Part shown: positions 4,459-36,208 of the stretch, piece after piece
How the letters are laid out: the number at the start of each line of letters is the position of its first letter
How positions within the stretch are numbered: the stretch's first letter is position 1
Notes under the pieces: generated by a model
Told to the model about the DNA's origin: nothing
The model's database searches: none
What the model saw: the letters and a program-made list of their open reading frames with translations, nothing else
Position numbers and translations under genes: made by a program
NCBI GenBank assembly: GCA_937125455.1
Contig: CAKZLK010000047.1
Location: 140,526 to 204,525 of the forward strand
From: an uncultured Aequorivita sp.
GTDB lineage: Bacteria > Bacteroidota > Bacteroidia > Flavobacteriales > Flavobacteriaceae
Direction of reading: 5' to 3'
DNA length: 64,000 nt

Positions 4459-5964
4459 ATGAATAAATTAATCAAACTCACATTTTCAGCTTTCTTATTA
4501 ATTTTTTTAGTAAGCTCTTGTACAAAGGAAGATTCACAACCTTTTGATGATTCAAACACTGATATAGTAGCTATAAATTCCGAACTAGGGGATTTATTGC
4601 TTCGTACTTCAGACAATAACAATACTTCTTCAATCGATTGTATAGATTTCGTTTATCCGCTTACTTTCTTTATCTACAATTCAGATCAACAGCAAACTGG
4701 AACACAAACGGTTAACAACGATGGTGAGCTTCTTGCTTTATTACTTTCCTTAGAAAATGGAACTTATATGGCTCTGCAGTTTCCCATTAATGTAATACTG
4801 CAAGACGGTACTATCGTACAAGTTAATAGTAATACAGAATTAGTGACATTAATTTCCGGCTGTTCATCCAATGGAGGAGGATTTCCTTCAGACTTTGAAA
4901 GTATTTTGACCTCTGGTGCTTGGTTTGTCACTTATTATTTCGATGATGTAGATGAAACAAGTGATTTTGAGGGCTATGAGTTTACATTCGCAACAGACAA
5001 TACCGCCCAAGCGGTAAGTTCTTCCAATTCGGTGGATGGAACTTGGAGCTTGACAAATAGCAATACCCCTGATCTAAATCTTTTCTTCGGAACCAATAAT
5101 CCTTTTGATGAGCTTGACGAAGATTGGGATATTATTGAGGCAACCCAAGATATAATTAAATTGAAACACATTAGCGGTGGCGACGGCAGTGTTGACTTTT
5201 TAACGTACGAACGCAATCCGAACGGCGGTGGAGGCGGTGGAAACACTACTGAATTTACTGATAATTTGACAAATAGTGTATGGTATGTAAACCTATTGGA
5301 AGACGATGGGAATAATGAAACCTGTGATTATGTTGCTTATGAATTCAAATTCAACGCCAATGAAACAGTTACTGCTACAAGCACAAATAACACGGTTAAT
5401 GGTACCTGGACAGTTACCAATAGCAGTAGCGGAATAGACCTTGTTTTGAATTTCGAAATTACGGGCAGTAATGATCCTTTTGATGATTTAAATGATGATT
5501 GGGATGTCACCAGTTTTGACGCCCAAAACGTAAAATTAATTGATGTTAGCGGCGGTAACGGCGGTACAGATTATCTTAATTTTGGAAGAAATCCATACGC
5601 AGATTGTAATGGTGGAGGAAACACTTCAGAGCTGATCAATATCCTAAACGATGGTCAATGGTATGTGCAAAGCTATATAGACGATGGTAATGACGAAACC
5701 AACGATTACATTGGGTATTTACTTACTTTTAACACAGGTGGAAGCGTGATTGCAGAAAACAGCAACAATACAATAACTGGGACTTGGAGTGTTGTCAATA
5801 GTAGTAATGGTCTTGATGTAATATTAGATTTTGGAACTGCAATACCTTTTAACGAGTTTAATGATGATTGGGATGTTGACACCTACACAAACACCCGAGT
5901 TGAGCTCTTTGATATTAGCGGAGGCAATGGCGGAACCGATTATCTAACTTTTGAAAAACTATAA
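4459..5964 (+). CDS. Lipoprotein with one DQQQT-type module and three copies of the repeated ~110 aa module
   Basis: Lipobox IFLVSSC; repeats as in 2011-3783, e.g. SGAWFVTYYFDDVDETSDFEGYEFTF...LDEDWDIIEATQDIIKLKHISGGDGSVDFLTYERNPN. Confidence 0.8.
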   Translation: MNKLIKLTFSAFLLIFLVSSCTKEDSQPFDDSNTDIVAINSELGDLLLRTSDNNNTSSIDCIDFVYPLTFFIYNSDQQQTGTQTVNNDGELLALLLSLENGTYMALQFPINVILQDGTIVQVNSNTELVTLISGCSSNGGGFPSDFESILTSGAWFVTYYFDDVDETSDFEGYEFTFATDNTAQAVSSSNSVDGTWSLTNSNTPDLNLFFGTNNPFDELDEDWDIIEATQDIIKLKHISGGDGSVDFLTYERNPNGGGGGGNTTEFTDNLTNSVWYVNLLEDDGNNETCDYVAYEFKFNANETVTATSTNNTVNGTWTVTNSSSGIDLVLNFEITGSNDPFDDLNDDWDVTSFDAQNVKLIDVSGGNGGTDYLNFGRNPYADCNGGGNTSELINILNDGQWYVQSYIDDGNDETNDYIGYLLTFNTGGSVIAENSNNTITGTWSVVNSSNGLDVILDFGTAIPFNEFNDDWDVDTYTNTRVELFDISGGNGGTDYLTFEKL

Positions 5965-8727: not shown

Positions 8728-9354
8728 CTAATCTAGATGATAAATTTCCATTATGCCTTTCAGCACTTTATCAAAATTAATTTTTAAATCAATCAATTTT
8801 CCCGTTTCCATGTCCATTACCCAGCCATGGACTGTTAAATTTCTATTTCTATAGGCAATTTGTACGTCTGCGGTTTTAATAACATTTACACACTGTTCCT
8901 GTACATTCAGTTCTACAAGTCGACGGTATTTTTCTTCTTCTGTTTTTAATTGGTTGAGCTCTTGATTATGCAACCTATATACATCCCGAATATTTCGCAG
9001 CCAAGGGTTCAATATTCCTAAATCCTGACTTTGCATAGCGGCTTTTACACCACCACATCCATAGTGGCCACAAACAATTATGTGGTTAACCTTTAAATAG
9101 CTAACGGCATAATTGATTACGCTCATAGCGCTGAGATCCAAGTTGGAAACCATATTGGCGATATTCCGCAGGATAAAGGCTTCCCCCGGTTTGGCGCCCA
9201 TAATTTCCTCAGCAGTAACACGACTATCACTGCAGCCTATATACAGTACTTCTGGATTTTGGCCTTCGGAAAGATTTTTAAAATAATTAGGATCCAACCC
9301 TAATTTTTCATTTACCCAAGCTTGATTGTTTTTAAAAATTTGATCGATATTCAT
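8728..9354 (-). CDS. Beta-class carbonic anhydrase
   Basis: CSDSRVTAEEIMGAKPGEAFILRNIANMV, HIIVCGHYGCGGVKAA. Confidence 0.95.
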   Translation of the reverse strand: MNIDQIFKNNQAWVNEKLGLDPNYFKNLSEGQNPEVLYIGCSDSRVTAEEIMGAKPGEAFILRNIANMVSNLDLSAMSVINYAVSYLKVNHIIVCGHYGCGGVKAAMQSQDLGILNPWLRNIRDVYRLHNQELNQLKTEEEKYRRLVELNVQEQCVNVIKTADVQIAYRNRNLTVHGWVMDMETGKLIDLKINFDKVLKGIMEIYHLD

Positions 9355-18623: not shown

Positions 18624-18707
18624 TTATACGTTAATCGGTCTCAATGCGGTATGCCTTTTCTGCGCTTCTATGCATGCTGGATTTTCTAATAATTCTTTAA
18701 ACTTCAT
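18624..18707 (-). CDS. Candidate 27-aa micro-ORF overlapping the sulfotransferase stop (ATGA)
   Basis: MKFKELLENPACIEAQKRHTALRPINV*, ATG overlaps TGA of 18704-19444. Confidence 0.3.
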   Translation of the reverse strand: MKFKELLENPACIEAQKRHTALRPINV

Positions 18708-19444
18708 CCAAAGAATTTAATCAATCCATAGATGATCGCAACTAATATGATTGCTCCAATAGCCAATATTGTATATGCTCCTTTGGTTATATCTGCAATT
18801 GTCTTTTTAATTTCTGCGCGATCATTTACATTTGGAAACTCAGAATTTGGCACTTCAACATCTAAAAATTTGCAAAGTGGTTCCCATCCCTGATCTACTG
18901 TAAAGATTAAAAGCTTTTCTTTAGGAATTGCAGCTTTCACTTCTTCTATATGTTCATTATAGCATGCAATAGCCAATGTTTTATCATTCATTGTCCCCTT
19001 GTGATTTCGTTGCCAAATTAATTTCGCGCTCATATTTCCCATTTTTCTACCGAATGAGGTGAAGAGTTCAAGGACTTTAAACTGCCATCGGTTTTCGGTA
19101 AAATAAATGGTTGCTATGGTGCTTTCGTACCAGGCCTCGGGTCCGCGCGGATGCAAAGTGAGTAATACTTTTGCATCGGGGTTTGCTTCATACAATTCAC
19201 GCCATACACAACACGCCGGATTATCTACAGTAGCGTTATACTTTTCAAATACTTTATCCCAATCATGTTGCTGGCCAGCCTTTGCATTAGCCACATCATT
19301 CCAAAAATCGAGATGCCCTTTATTTTCTTTATTAAGAATTACTTCCGACATGTGGTAGCATGGAAATCCCAATTGCTTTAATGCGGTAAATGTTGACATG
19401 GTACCTGTTCGTCCATATCCTGCTCCTATTATTTTTAGATTCAT
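18704..19444 (-). CDS. Sulfotransferase family protein with C-terminal transmembrane tail
   Basis: KIIGAGYGRTGTMSTFTALKQLGFPCYHMSEV (PAPS-binding-like loop); C-term YTILAIGAIILVAIIYGLIKFFG. Confidence 0.85.
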   Translation of the reverse strand: MNLKIIGAGYGRTGTMSTFTALKQLGFPCYHMSEVILNKENKGHLDFWNDVANAKAGQQHDWDKVFEKYNATVDNPACCVWRELYEANPDAKVLLTLHPRGPEAWYESTIATIYFTENRWQFKVLELFTSFGRKMGNMSAKLIWQRNHKGTMNDKTLAIACYNEHIEEVKAAIPKEKLLIFTVDQGWEPLCKFLDVEVPNSEFPNVNDRAEIKKTIADITKGAYTILAIGAIILVAIIYGLIKFFG

Positions 19445-19524
19445 TTATTATGGTTTTAGAATTTCTGTCTTATAGGTTTGCATATAGAATTCTTTGTTAT
19501 TTTGATTGTTAACTTTTAAAATGT

Positions 19525-19830
19525 TTATCCTTCAACACTTCCAACAATCAGCGTTGCACCACCAGTTGCAAAATTGGCCAAGTCTGCTGCTGTGGCCTGT
19601 CCCTCAGGCGAACCCATGGTAGTCTGCATAGCTTCTGGACTGGAAAACCAAAATTCCGCCATTCTGTAATAGGCAGCTTTTGAACCATCTGGAGCACTTA
19701 AAAATTTGGTGAGTTCAAGCTTTGTATGCCCTTTCATTTTTGCAGCTTTTGGCAAGTGGGTATTGGTGTAATGATCTTCAAATGCGTTAATGTCTGTTGG
19801 GTGTCCATAAAGGACAGTTAGTTTAATCAT
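19525..19830 (-). CDS. EthD family protein (dimeric alpha-beta barrel)
   Basis: IKLTVLYGHPTDINAFEDHYTNTHLPKAAKMKG...YRMAEFWFSSPEAMQTTMGSPEGQATAADLANFATGG. Confidence 0.9.
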   Translation of the reverse strand: MIKLTVLYGHPTDINAFEDHYTNTHLPKAAKMKGHTKLELTKFLSAPDGSKAAYYRMAEFWFSSPEAMQTTMGSPEGQATAADLANFATGGATLIVGSVEG

Positions 19831-19866
19831 GTCATTTGTTTTAGAGTTAATAGTTTTATCTTGATA

Positions 19867-20388
19867 TTATTCCGCCTTATGCACTTCCAACTCTATTTCA
19901 ATCAAAAATTCGGGAAGCGCCAATTCTTTTACACCAAGCCAAGATCCAGTTGGGAATTGTTTTTTGTAGATTTCATTTCTATATGCGGCAACTTCCAAGA
20001 ACTTAGGCATATTGGTAGTGAACACATTTTCAACAACCACATCGTCAAAAGTGCAGCCGTAATGTTTTAGGATCTTATCTAAATCGGCATAACAGTTTTT
20101 CATTTGCTGTTCAAAATCGCCTACTGCAGTTGGATTACCTTCATCGTCCATACTCACAGCGCCAGAGATTTTTATGTCGTTGCCTATTTTTACGGCATGC
20201 GAATAGCCATAGGCTTTTTCCACTTCTGGACGCAGCAGAAAATAGTCTGGGGTTTCATCTGCAACAACAGTTTCAGTTGGTTTTGGTTTTTCTAGAGTTG
20301 TTTCCGTTTTGGTTTTCTCGTTGCAGCTGGAGAATGATATTGCTGCCACTAAAGCGATTGCTAATGTTGTTAATTTTGTTGTCTTCAT
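19867..20388 (-). CDS. RidA family protein, secreted/lipoprotein form
   Basis: Lipobox-like AISFSSC; GYSHAVKIGNDIKISGAVSMDDEG...QMKNCYADLDKILKHYGCTFDDVVVENVFTTNM. Confidence 0.88.
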   Translation of the reverse strand: MKTTKLTTLAIALVAAISFSSCNEKTKTETTLEKPKPTETVVADETPDYFLLRPEVEKAYGYSHAVKIGNDIKISGAVSMDDEGNPTAVGDFEQQMKNCYADLDKILKHYGCTFDDVVVENVFTTNMPKFLEVAAYRNEIYKKQFPTGSWLGVKELALPEFLIEIELEVHKAE

Positions 20389-20424
20389 TTTTGATTGTTT
20401 TATAGTTGATTTATAATTTAGGGT

Positions 20425-21360
20425 TTAATCATTAACACCATATTTAATCTGCCTGCTATATTCTTCATCATCAAAAGTCCCTTTCGATTCTTTTATTAAA
20501 CCGTTGTCATCCAATTCCCAAAGTTCAAAACCGCTTATGTTTACTTTTTTTCCTGTTCCGTTTGCACCTGTGTTGGTTCCAGTTAATGTCCAATGAAATT
20601 CGGTGTCTTTTGGAGTTTTTACCAAACTGTCAAAAGCCACAATCATATCATCGGGAAAGGCATCTATAAAGGCTTTGGCAGATTGGGTAATGGCTGCCCT
20701 GCCAGTAGCGGGAGTGCCATTATTTATATTAAGGGAGCCATCTTCGGCATAAAATAAAGCCACATACTCGGGTTTCTTGCTGCACCATGCCTGTGCATAA
20801 CTCTTAGCGAAGACGATTGGGTCGTAAATTCTTTCAGTTTCTGGAATACGGGTGGAGGTGAACGAAATATTGATAAACTTCTAAGCTTCATTTTCTTTTA
20901 TCAATGTGAAATAATCAATGTTGTGCAAAAGCGGAACTCCAAAAGCATGTAAAACAGCATCGGCTTTTACGAATGCCAAATGTCCATCGCTTAGGTGGAT
21001 TGTGTATTCTTTTACGGGTTCAAAATAAGGGCGATTTGTTCTGTTTTTTGCCGCTTCAAAATATTCGCTCATTAACATGGTTTCGGTAGTCCATTTGCCA
21101 TCCCTTAATCTTATGGTTGCTAGATTTGCATTATCTGACATCATTTTTACCATGGCATCCAAGTTGTAATTGCCTGCCACAATTAGAAATTGTTCAACAG
21201 TTGCTTTTACATCAGCTTCGTCTTGGGTGTAAATTTTTAATATTGCGTTTGTTGTTTGTGAATTTTTCATTGCATCGGAATTTTGACCAATAGCTTGATT
21301 CATATGCATCAAGCCGAAGGCAAGACACATCAGCGAATAGTATTTTAAAGTGGTTGCCAT
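20425..21360 (-). pseudogene. Two-domain NTF2-like/SnoaL-like secreted protein interrupted by in-frame TAG (20881-20883)
   Basis: ORFs 20881-21414 and 20425-20763 are in the same frame; reading through TAG gives ...NIDYFTLIKENEA[TAG]KFINISFTSTRIPETERIYDPIVFAKSYAQAWCSKKPEYVALFYAEDGSLN..., restoring both domains. Confidence 0.75.
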
Positions 21361-21418
21361 TTTTGTAATTATTTGAATAGTCGAAATTTTTAATTTGGGC
21401 CTTTGTTTTTTCATCTTT

Positions 21419-21856
21419 TTAATGATATTTCTTTACAATAATTGATTTTGTTGAAGCCGAATTCTCCCGTAATTTCGCAACGGTTTTGTATTCTTCGGAA
21501 GTTGTAAAACTCTGAAGTTGTTCTATGGATTCCCATTCCAGGATAATGAATCGGTTTGGGTTCCAGTTTCCTTCCACGGGTGTCACTTTTCGGTCGGGTT
21601 CCGGGTCAAACGCCATCCCACCTGAACGTACCAAATAGATTCCGCCATATTTTTCAATAAGTGGTTCCACTTTTGCCCGATATTGCTGGTATTGAAGTGA
21701 ATCGTTCACCGTAATATCCAAAACCATCAATATTTTTTCTGAAGGCATTCCAGTTATATGCGAATCAACACTCCCATGGGGGTCACTGTTTTGGGCGTTT
21801 ACTGTATATATGCCCATAAATAGAAATATTAGAAGTTTAAGTATTTTTGTTTTCAT
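21419..21856 (-). CDS. DUF1330-like / alpha-beta barrel secreted protein
   Basis: LDITVNDSLQYQQYRAKVEPLIEKYGGIYLVRSGGM...NPNRFIILEWESIEQLQSFTTSEEYKTVAKLRENSASTKSIIV; signal peptide. Confidence 0.85.
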   Translation of the reverse strand: MKTKILKLLIFLFMGIYTVNAQNSDPHGSVDSHITGMPSEKILMVLDITVNDSLQYQQYRAKVEPLIEKYGGIYLVRSGGMAFDPEPDRKVTPVEGNWNPNRFIILEWESIEQLQSFTTSEEYKTVAKLRENSASTKSIIVKKYH

Positions 21857-25968: not shown

Positions 25969-26736
25969 CTAGATTGTTTGTAGACGTTTAAGCAGTTCTG
26001 TGCGCATTGCTTTGCTCATTGGGATGGCTTTTTTTGAAATAACCACGTGCGTACCGGCAACTTCATCTATTTGGGAAATATTGATAATATAGGAACGGTG
26101 TATTCTGAGAAAATGGTTCTGTGGAAGCTTTTCATCAATATCCTTTAATGTCATTACCAAAAGATATTCTCTATCTTGTGAAAAAATACGGCAATAGTTG
26201 CGATCGGCTTCAATATAGTAGATGTCTTTAATATCTATTTTTAGCATCTTTTCGTTATTGCGAACAAAAATGCGGTCGTTTAATATGAAATCGGTAGTAT
26301 TTCCGTTGGTTGCTGCTGTCTCGCTGCCATTTCCATTGTCATTTTCTGAAGATTTTTCCAATGAAATTCTATCAACCGTTAATTCAATAGCGCGCTGCAA
26401 ATCCAATTTTTTGAAGGGTTTTGATATAAAAGCATAGGGATGTGTTTCCTTGGCGCGATTAAAATGAGCTTCGTCTGCGTTTGCGGTGAGATAAATGATT
26501 GGGATGTTATATTGCTTTTGTATTTCGTGCGCGGTTTCTATTCCGTCCAGTTCGCCTTTTAGCTGAATGTCCAATAAGACTATATCTGGTTTGTCTATTT
26601 TTATATGCGAAAGGGTTTCCTCCCCACGGGGCAAAATTCCTGTTACTTCATAGCCCAATTCGGTTAACTGCAAAGAAATATTGGCTGCAATGATCATTTC
26701 GTCTTCAACAATCAATATTTTTATTGCTTTCCCCAT
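25969..26736 (-). CDS. LytTR family response regulator
   Basis: REC domain KILIVEDEMIIAANISLQL...IVLLDIQLKGELDGIE; LytTR KDIYYIEADRNYCRIF...HRSYIINISQID. Confidence 0.95.
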   Translation of the reverse strand: MGKAIKILIVEDEMIIAANISLQLTELGYEVTGILPRGEETLSHIKIDKPDIVLLDIQLKGELDGIETAHEIQKQYNIPIIYLTANADEAHFNRAKETHPYAFISKPFKKLDLQRAIELTVDRISLEKSSENDNGNGSETAATNGNTTDFILNDRIFVRNNEKMLKIDIKDIYYIEADRNYCRIFSQDREYLLVMTLKDIDEKLPQNHFLRIHRSYIINISQIDEVAGTHVVISKKAIPMSKAMRTELLKRLQTI

Positions 26737-31241: not shown

Positions 31242-32291
31242 CTAAAATATTTCTTTTCTGAAATACTTCTTCCGCAACCAAAATGAGACCCTTACCAATA
31301 AAATCAAAGCAGGAACTTCAACCAAAGGACCAATAACCCCAGTAAAAGCTTGCCCAGAATTTAGTCCAAAAACAGCTATGGCAACAGCAATGGCCAATTC
31401 AAAATTGTTTCCAGCCGCGGTAAAGGCTATGGAAGCGGTTTTGTCATAAGTTGTACCCATTGCTTTTGAAAAGAAGAACCCAATAAGGAACATTAGACTA
31501 AAATAAATAAGCAACGGCACAGCAATGAGCAATACATCCATTGGGATTTCCACTATCAATTCCCCTTTCAAAGAAAACATCACTACAATAGTAAATAGTA
31601 ATGCAATTAGCGTCATTGGTGAAATGGTTGCAATGAACTTGGTTGTGTACCACTCTTCACCTTTCCACGGCACCAAAATCACTCTGCTCAATATGCCAAG
31701 CACAAAAGGAATGCCTAAATAAATAGCCACACTTTCGGCGATTGTGGCTATGGAAATATCAACAATGGCACCTTCAAATCCAAAATATGGAGGCAATACG
31801 GTAATAAAAATCCAAGCGTAAAAACTATAGGCAAACACTTGAAAAATACTGTTGAGCGCTACCAAGCCCGCACCGTATTCACTGCTTCCTTCGGCAAGGT
31901 CGTTCCATACCAAAACCATTGCAATGCAACGGGCGAGACCAATTAAAATAAGCCCTACCATATATTCTGGATAATCTCGAAGAAAAGTTACTGCCAATAC
32001 AAACATAAGTACGGGACCAATAATCCAGTTTAAAATTAAGGAGATGGAAAGTACTTTTACATCCTTAAACACTTTTGGCAAAAGAGCATAATTTACCTTG
32101 GCGAGTGGCGGATACATCATTAGAATTAACCCGATTGCGATGGGGATATTTGTTGTGCCACTACTAAATGAATTTAGTATGTCCGGAAATGAAGGAACAA
32201 AGTAACCTATTCCTACACCTATAGTCATCGCTATAAAAATCCAAAGGGTTAGGTAACTATCTAAAAAACTTAATTTCTTGGGAGTTGCCAT
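31242..32291 (-). CDS. ACR3-family arsenite efflux transporter
   Basis: [81 protein letters not shown]. Confidence 0.95.
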
Positions 32292-32929: not shown

Positions 32930-33418
32930 TTACGTTCCGACTATTTTACTTCGTCGCTCCAAAAGCACGTTGTCTTTCCACACGCCGTGAAGTTGTCCCA
33001 CTTTTTCTTTATATCCAATTTCTCGAAAACCACACTTCATGTGTAATTTATGGCTAGCGGTATTGTCTCGAAAGATTCCTGATTGTAGGGTCCATATGTC
33101 ATTAGCTTCGCTTATTTCAATTAAATTCTTTAAAAGAAATTCGCCTACACCTTTTCCTCTTGCAGATTCTGAAACGTAAACGCTTACCTCAGCTACACCG
33201 CCATAAACACAACGGCTAGAAACAGGGGAGAGGGCAGCCCAGCCTAAATACTGGTTTTCTTTTACAACCAGGATTCTTCCAAACGAAAGATGCCCATTGT
33301 TCCACTTTTCCCAATATGGAATGGTTGTTTCAAAAGTAGCTGTTCCCGTTGCTAAACCTTCGCCGTAAATTCTGGCGACTTCAGGAAAATTTTCTTCAGA
33401 AATATCAATCAACTTCAT
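32930..33418 (-). CDS. GNAT N-acetyltransferase, ArsN/phosphinothricin-acetyltransferase-like
   Basis: EGLATGTATFETTIPYWEKW, VSVYVSESARGKGVGEFLL, LHMKCGFREIGYKEKVGQLHGVWKD. Confidence 0.88.
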   Translation of the reverse strand: MKLIDISEENFPEVARIYGEGLATGTATFETTIPYWEKWNNGHLSFGRILVVKENQYLGWAALSPVSSRCVYGGVAEVSVYVSESARGKGVGEFLLKNLIEISEANDIWTLQSGIFRDNTASHKLHMKCGFREIGYKEKVGQLHGVWKDNVLLERRSKIVGT

Positions 33419-33429
33419 ACTAGTTCATA

Positions 33430-33897
33430 CTAGCAACAATTGCCGTCTGGCGAGCAACAAGGTTCATCGTTTATCTCAGCAAGTTTCACCTTCGTTTTTT
33501 CAACAGGAATACCACAATTTTCTTTTGCAAGACAATCAGTTTGTTTAGTGGTGAGTAAAAAGTTGGTGCCATCAAAGTCCAGCCCGAATTTACCAATCGT
33601 TTCGGCTTGGTATTCCACTTCAATTTCCAAATCTTTAAGGCCAAGTACTTTTTCCGAAAGCTCTATAATGTGAAGCAGTTTTTCGGGGTGCAAGCGGTGG
33701 TTGTAGTCGTCGGCATTCCAAAGTTGGAAATTGGCAACTTCCTCGTTACGGACCGTCCCACCGCAGTCAATAAAGTGTTTAGTGATTTTTCCCACTTCAG
33801 TAACGTGAAAATGACTGGGAACCAAATCGCCATTGGGCTGCATAAAAGTTATATGCTCAAGTTGTGTCAATTGTTTTTTAATTTCAGAGAGTTTCAT
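33430..33897 (-). CDS. DUF6428 family protein with Cys-rich C-terminus
   Basis: HFHVTEVGKITKHFIDCGGTVRNEEVANFQLWNADDYNHRLHPEKLL; C-term EPCCSPDGNCC; in ars operon. Confidence 0.8.
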   Translation of the reverse strand: MKLSEIKKQLTQLEHITFMQPNGDLVPSHFHVTEVGKITKHFIDCGGTVRNEEVANFQLWNADDYNHRLHPEKLLHIIELSEKVLGLKDLEIEVEYQAETIGKFGLDFDGTNFLLTTKQTDCLAKENCGIPVEKTKVKLAEINDEPCCSPDGNCC

Positions 33898-35644: not shown

Positions 35645-36208
35645 TTATAAATCCAGTAATTTTTCAAAAGTATCAAAATGATGTTTTTCTGTTCTAAGTG
35701 AAATAGTCAACATATCATTTCTAAGTACAATGGAATAGATTTCTTTAGAAATGAAAAGAGACTTTAGCCTTTGATTCAAACTCTCTATTAGTGAAACCTT
35801 ATTTGTTGCATCATTAATTAAATAATCTTTTGATAATTTATAAATTTTTAGTTCTTTTTTGAAAAGCCTTTTCATCATACCAATACTATCTTTTCTTCTT
35901 ATTGCGAACTCGGAGTTTTGCGACCCCACCCACGGAATTGACCATTCTGCTATGGTAAGAAGGCATTGTTTTTTAGAAGAAAGTATCAAGTTTCCTGTGG
36001 AAGTGTAAGTGGCTTTTTTATATTTTAAATGCCAAGGTTTTGGAGCCATTATCTCACCTTGTATAAAATATGACCAAGCGTTGTAATTCCCTTTAACTTT
36101 ACCATTCTTGCTGGCAACATAATTTTCAAATTGTCTGCAGAATTCCTCATTCATTTTATAGAAAGGAGATGTGAGTTCCGATGAGGCAGCATTTGATTTT
36201 ATCTTCAT
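35645..36208 (-). CDS. Hypothetical protein
   Basis: ORF with coding-like composition, adjacent (0 bp) to GNAT gene. Confidence 0.65.
   Translation of the reverse strand: MKIKSNAASSELTSPFYKMNEEFCRQFENYVASKNGKVKGNYNAWSYFIQGEIMAPKPWHLKYKKATYTSTGNLILSSKKQCLLTIAEWSIPWVGSQNSEFAIRRKDSIGMMKRLFKKELKIYKLSKDYLINDATNKVSLIESLNQRLKSLFISKEIYSIVLRNDMLTISLRTEKHHFDTFEKLLDL

What the first reader, a model, noticed from the sequence alone, without database searches (positions are those of the whole stretch)
20425..21414. In-frame TAG replaces an expected Trp in a two-domain NTF2-like secreted protein
Seen: ORFs 20881-21414 and 20425-20763 are in the same frame, separated by one TAG (20881-20883 on +). Reading across gives ...YFTLIKENEA[TAG]KFINISFTSTRIPETE-RIYDPIVFAKSYAQAWCSKKPEYVALFYAEDGSLN.... 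Known: NTF2-like/DUF4440 domains commonly end with a strand of the type '..L.k..g.WkF.n.s.t', so a Trp codon TGG to TAG is the simplest explanation. The second ORF has only a GTG inside its own SnoaL-like domain, so it would lack its N-terminal helix if translated alone. This is a recent pseudogene, a sequencing error, or a suppressed/read-through stop.
Basis: partly seen in the sequence, partly recalled or inferred. Interest (0 to 1): 0.68.

Follow-up and report, generated by a model that had tools for sequence, protein, structure and literature searches.

The report
Recent nonsense mutation in secreted protein
A single tryptophan codon has become a stop codon in this one Aequorivita genome and cuts an otherwise normal secreted two-domain protein in half; this is most likely an ordinary recent gene loss, or less likely a sequencing error, and not a new way of reading the code.

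Summary
One reading frame (21414 to 20425) is broken by a single TAG at 20881-20883. The nearest relative, A. antarctica (about 87% identical), is intact in the same gene neighbourhood.

TAG is an ordinary stop here: RF1 is intact, no tRNA has a CUA or UUA anticodon, and other window genes end in TAG where their orthologues end. No start codon after the stop would restore the second domain. Both halves show pairwise dN/dS well below 1 and little decay, so the lesion is recent. Of 42 A. antarctica ORFs matched in the window, this is the only one with a stop inside the mature coding region.

The best explanation is a recent nonsense (amber) pseudogene. A consensus sequencing error is the main rival and cannot be excluded without reads. 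Programmed read-through is unlikely. Two corrections: the start is probably ATG 21360, not 21414, and three congeners encode the second domain alone behind its own leader.

The parts
20425..21360 (-). Interrupted gene: secreted two-domain NTF2-like/SnoaL-like protein, probable true extent (start ATG 21360-21358)
   Evidence: Aligned starts 'MATTLKYY..' in relatives L104, L105, L113, 'MTDFKYY..' in L106; the stretch upstream has in-frame stops in relatives
21283..21360 (-). Predicted signal peptide (MATTLKYYSLMCLAFGLMHMNQAIGQ)
   Evidence: Sequence character (hydrophobic N terminus); aligned hydrophobic N termini in relatives; no dedicated signal-peptide predictor was run
20881..21234 (-). N-terminal NTF2-like (Lumazine_bd_2-like) domain, truncated before its last strand
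   Evidence: Pfam on intact homologues; AlphaFold model of relative L104 puts the Trp at the start of strand 158-169
20881..20883 (-). In-frame TAG in place of an invariant Trp (TGG) codon
   Evidence: 19 of 19 two-domain homologues have Trp here
20428..20829 (-). C-terminal SnoaL-like domain, now without a start codon or leader of its own
   Evidence: Pfam SnoaL E=1.9e-13; first candidate start is GTG 20763, inside the domain's second helix

Best explanation
This is a recent nonsense (amber) mutation in one Aequorivita species or strain. The ancestral gene, still intact in relatives, makes an exported protein of two NTF2-like domains: a Lumazine_bd_2-like domain and then a SnoaL-like domain. 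Shown: a TGG codon conserved in every two-domain homologue reads TAG here. Inferred: translation ends there through RF1; the N-terminal domain is made without its last beta strand and is probably unstable; the SnoaL domain is not made, since no start codon after the stop retains its first helix or gives it an export signal. The gene is therefore a young pseudogene that has not had time to decay.
For: Single TAG in one frame. Trp in 10 of 10 two-domain Aequorivita genes and in 9 outside the genus, including A. antarctica with the same neighbours. Only one copy in the genome. RF1 (prfA) intact at 500.8 bits against a cut-off of 423. 57 tRNA matches, none with anticodon CUA or UUA. Window genes ending in TAG match orthologues over their full length (e.g. 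437-1363, 8728-9354, 25969-26736, 31242-32291). Pairwise dN/dS against A. antarctica is 0.26 (N domain) and 0.11 (C domain). On the window branch the C domain has 6 nonsynonymous to 2 synonymous changes, against 5 to 8 in A. antarctica, and 3 window-only residues at otherwise invariant C-domain columns (none in the N domain), compatible with a short period of relaxed selection, though the numbers are too small to prove it. No downstream restart site.
Against: No reads and no second strain could be examined, so the base is known from one assembly only. Conservation of the C domain is also what a sequencing error would give.
Confidence: 0.75

Rival explanations
1. Assembly or sequencing error: the strain has TGG, the protein is intact, and the consensus base is wrong.
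For: The stop is private to this genome and the rest of the gene looks conserved.
Against: A base substitution in consensus is rare with short-read or polished data (general knowledge); the other 41 A. antarctica ORFs matched in the window show no stop inside their mature coding region (the one other flagged match appears to lie in an N-terminal extension before the window gene's ATG), so the assembly is not generally error-rich. Not excluded.
Confidence: 0.18
2. Functional read-through or suppression of TAG, giving a mixture of short and full-length protein.
For: The frame stays open after the stop and the C domain has low pairwise dN/dS; conserved in-frame stops with dN/dS below 1 have been reported as possible read-through in bacteria (PMC7918605).
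Against: That paper's criterion is a stop shared by orthologues; here none of 19 shares it. RF1 is intact and no amber-reading tRNA is present. The RNA around the stop is not unusually structured (z = +1.4).
Confidence: 0.05
3. Gene fission: the two halves act as separate proteins.
For: Three congeners (G316, G309, G319) encode the SnoaL domain alone, so it can function without the first domain.
Against: In those genomes the domain has its own start and leader. Here the first usable start is a GTG inside the domain, and the N domain ends before its last strand.
Confidence: 0.02

Closest known systems
Intact orthologue in Aequorivita antarctica SW49 (L031/L106)
   Same: Same two-domain protein, about 87% identical, same gene neighbourhood (DUF1330 gene upstream, RidA gene downstream)
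   Different: Trp at the codon that reads TAG here
Young bacterial pseudogenes formed by a single inactivating mutation (Kuo and Ochman 2010, PMC2916853)
   Same: Single inactivating change, private to one genome, little further decay
   Different: Nothing notable; loss of expression has not been tested
In-frame stop codons proposed to be read through (PMC7918605)
   Same: Open frame continues after the stop with low pairwise dN/dS
   Different: Those stops are shared by orthologues; this one is not

Membership tests
Nonsense pseudogene | Stop codon where homologues have a sense codon | tested here: met
   19 of 19 two-domain homologues have Trp
Nonsense pseudogene | Stop is present in the organism and not only in the assembly | not testable with these tools
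   No reads and no second strain available
Nonsense pseudogene | Relaxed selection after inactivation | tested here: inconclusive
   C domain 6 nonsynonymous to 2 synonymous changes on the window branch, 5 to 8 in A. antarctica; too few changes
TAG read-through or recoding | Stop conserved at the same codon in orthologues | tested here: not met
   No orthologue has it
TAG read-through or recoding | Amber-decoding tRNA present, or RF1 missing | tested here: not met
   RF1 intact; no CUA or UUA anticodon among the tRNAs of the genome
SnoaL-like domain (PF07366/PF12680), C-terminal half | Profile match over the curated cut-off | tested here: met
   PF07366 50.8 bits against a cut-off of 28.4; PF12680 35.4 against 27
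NTF2-like domain, N-terminal half | Profile match over the cut-off, or NTF2-like fold | tested here: inconclusive
   Lumazine_bd_2 at 19.8 bits (cut-off 22.1) in L104, matched by 11 of 11 homologues at E<=0.1; model with moderate confidence (pLDDT 62.5) matches many NTF2-like PDB entries

The most novel reading that the evidence does not exclude
The TAG is genuinely present and is read through at a useful level in this strain, so that a short N-domain product and a full two-domain exported protein are both made.
Probability: 0.04. Interest if true: 0.45.

Novelty: already known. Interest (0 to 1): 0.12.

Why it matters
It matters little beyond annotation. It is a cleanly documented private nonsense mutation at a codon invariant in all two-domain homologues found, and a caution against annotating two separate proteins here. 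The side finding, that the locus swaps cargo domains behind one conserved leader across Aequorivita, is the more interesting part.

Tried and rejected
Recurrent stops in relatives: the TAA codons counted in L031-L034 looked at first like recurrent interruption, but they lie upstream of the conserved start. Genetic-code change: rejected on RF1, the tRNA set and normal TAG terminators. RNA read-through element after the stop: no unusual structure. A G-to-A hypermutation patch (GGG to GAA next to TGG to TAG), suspected from distant homologues only, was rejected because close relatives also have Glu there. First alignment was made on the wrong strand for several loci and was redone. PDB sequence search: no relatives.

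Full report
Observation. On the minus strand, 21414 to 20425 is one reading frame broken by a single TAG at 20881-20883; the plus strand there is closed by many stops. The window is from a genome of the genus Aequorivita (Flavobacteriaceae): congeners recovered by name include A. antarctica, A. aquimaris, A. todarodis and A. vladivostokensis.

Homologues. A search of 301 genomes of the family and then of 28 genomes of the genus found two-domain relatives that read straight through the codon. In every one (10 in the genus: L002, L031-L039; 7 elsewhere in the family: L003-L009; and L110 Gelidibacter and L112 from an Ignavibacterium MAG) the residue is Trp, i.e. TGG (codons printed; translations). 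The stop is thus private to this genome. The protein tree places the window gene as sister to A. antarctica (support 0.98), whose gene is intact and lies in the same neighbourhood. The genome has no second copy.

Start site. ATG 21414 is probably not the start: the extra 18 codons contain stops in A. antarctica and are cut off by a stop in other relatives, while 'M(A)T..KYY' at 21360 is conserved among the close relatives. With that start the protein has a hydrophobic N terminus typical of a signal peptide (sequence inspection only).

Domains. The C-terminal half is a SnoaL-like domain (Pfam). The N-terminal half has no match on its own in the window copy, but the intact homologues match Lumazine_bd_2, an NTF2-like family, just below the cut-off. 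An AlphaFold model of the MAG relative L104 (pLDDT 62.5, so to be read with care) has the Trp at residue 159, at the start of strand 158-169, the last strand of the first domain, and its PDB matches are mainly NTF2/cystatin-fold proteins. Stopping at this codon therefore removes the final strand of domain 1 and all of domain 2.

Is TAG read as an amino acid? Nothing suggests so. RF1 is intact, the tRNA set has no amber-reading anticodon, several window genes end in TAG where A. antarctica orthologues end, and the RNA around the stop is not specially folded. The published case for functional in-frame stops rests on stops shared by orthologues (PMC7918605); this one is shared by none.

Could the second half be translated by itself? 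The first standard start after the stop is GTG 20763, inside the second helix of the domain, and the next ATG is at 20646. Three congeners do encode the SnoaL domain alone, but with a leader and start of their own, so the domain can be independent; here it lacks what it needs.

Age. Pairwise dN/dS to A. antarctica is 0.26 for the N domain and 0.11 for the C domain, and in the C domain the window branch has 6 nonsynonymous to 2 synonymous changes against 5 to 8 in the sister; only three window-only residues fall at otherwise invariant columns of the 11-sequence alignment, all in the C domain. This is what a recent lesion would give; it does not by itself separate a real mutation from a sequencing error. 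Among 42 A. antarctica ORFs with a match in the window, this is the only one with a stop inside the mature gene (one other flagged match, near 32936-33451, appears to be an N-terminal extension beyond the window gene's ATG, judged from coordinates only), so the assembly is not generally poor.

Verdict. A recent nonsense pseudogene is most likely (0.75), sequencing error is the main rival (0.18), functional read-through or fission is unlikely (0.07 together). Ordinary, and of low interest.

Noticed in passing
window 21419-21856; L104, L106-L109, L111, L040-L042: A signal peptide plus leader of the type 'Q..DPHGS..S.ITG..S.E' is shared by different cargo at the same locus across Aequorivita: a DUF1330 protein (window, A. 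antarctica, L104), the NTF2+SnoaL protein (A. aquimaris and others) or the SnoaL domain alone (three species). This looks like domain swapping behind one exported leader between a conserved 111-aa gene and a RidA gene.
   Followed up: partly
G000 contig C10 (44,026 bases): 4593-5626 and 18662-20473; L087, L088: Two dense tRNA arrays with about 18 tRNA genes on one 44 kb contig, one with an odd four-base anticodon call (gtaa); possibly a phage- or plasmid-borne tRNA array.
   Followed up: no
window 35645-36208 and its counterpart in A. antarctica (L046): The window gene is one frame, but its A. antarctica counterpart matches in two frames, suggesting a frameshift in A. antarctica.
   Followed up: no
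L007: A homologue in another genus has an in-frame TAA shortly before its C-terminal end.
   Followed up: no
L009 (G134): A homologue has lost the middle of its N-terminal domain by an in-frame deletion but keeps the Trp and the SnoaL domain.
   Followed up: no
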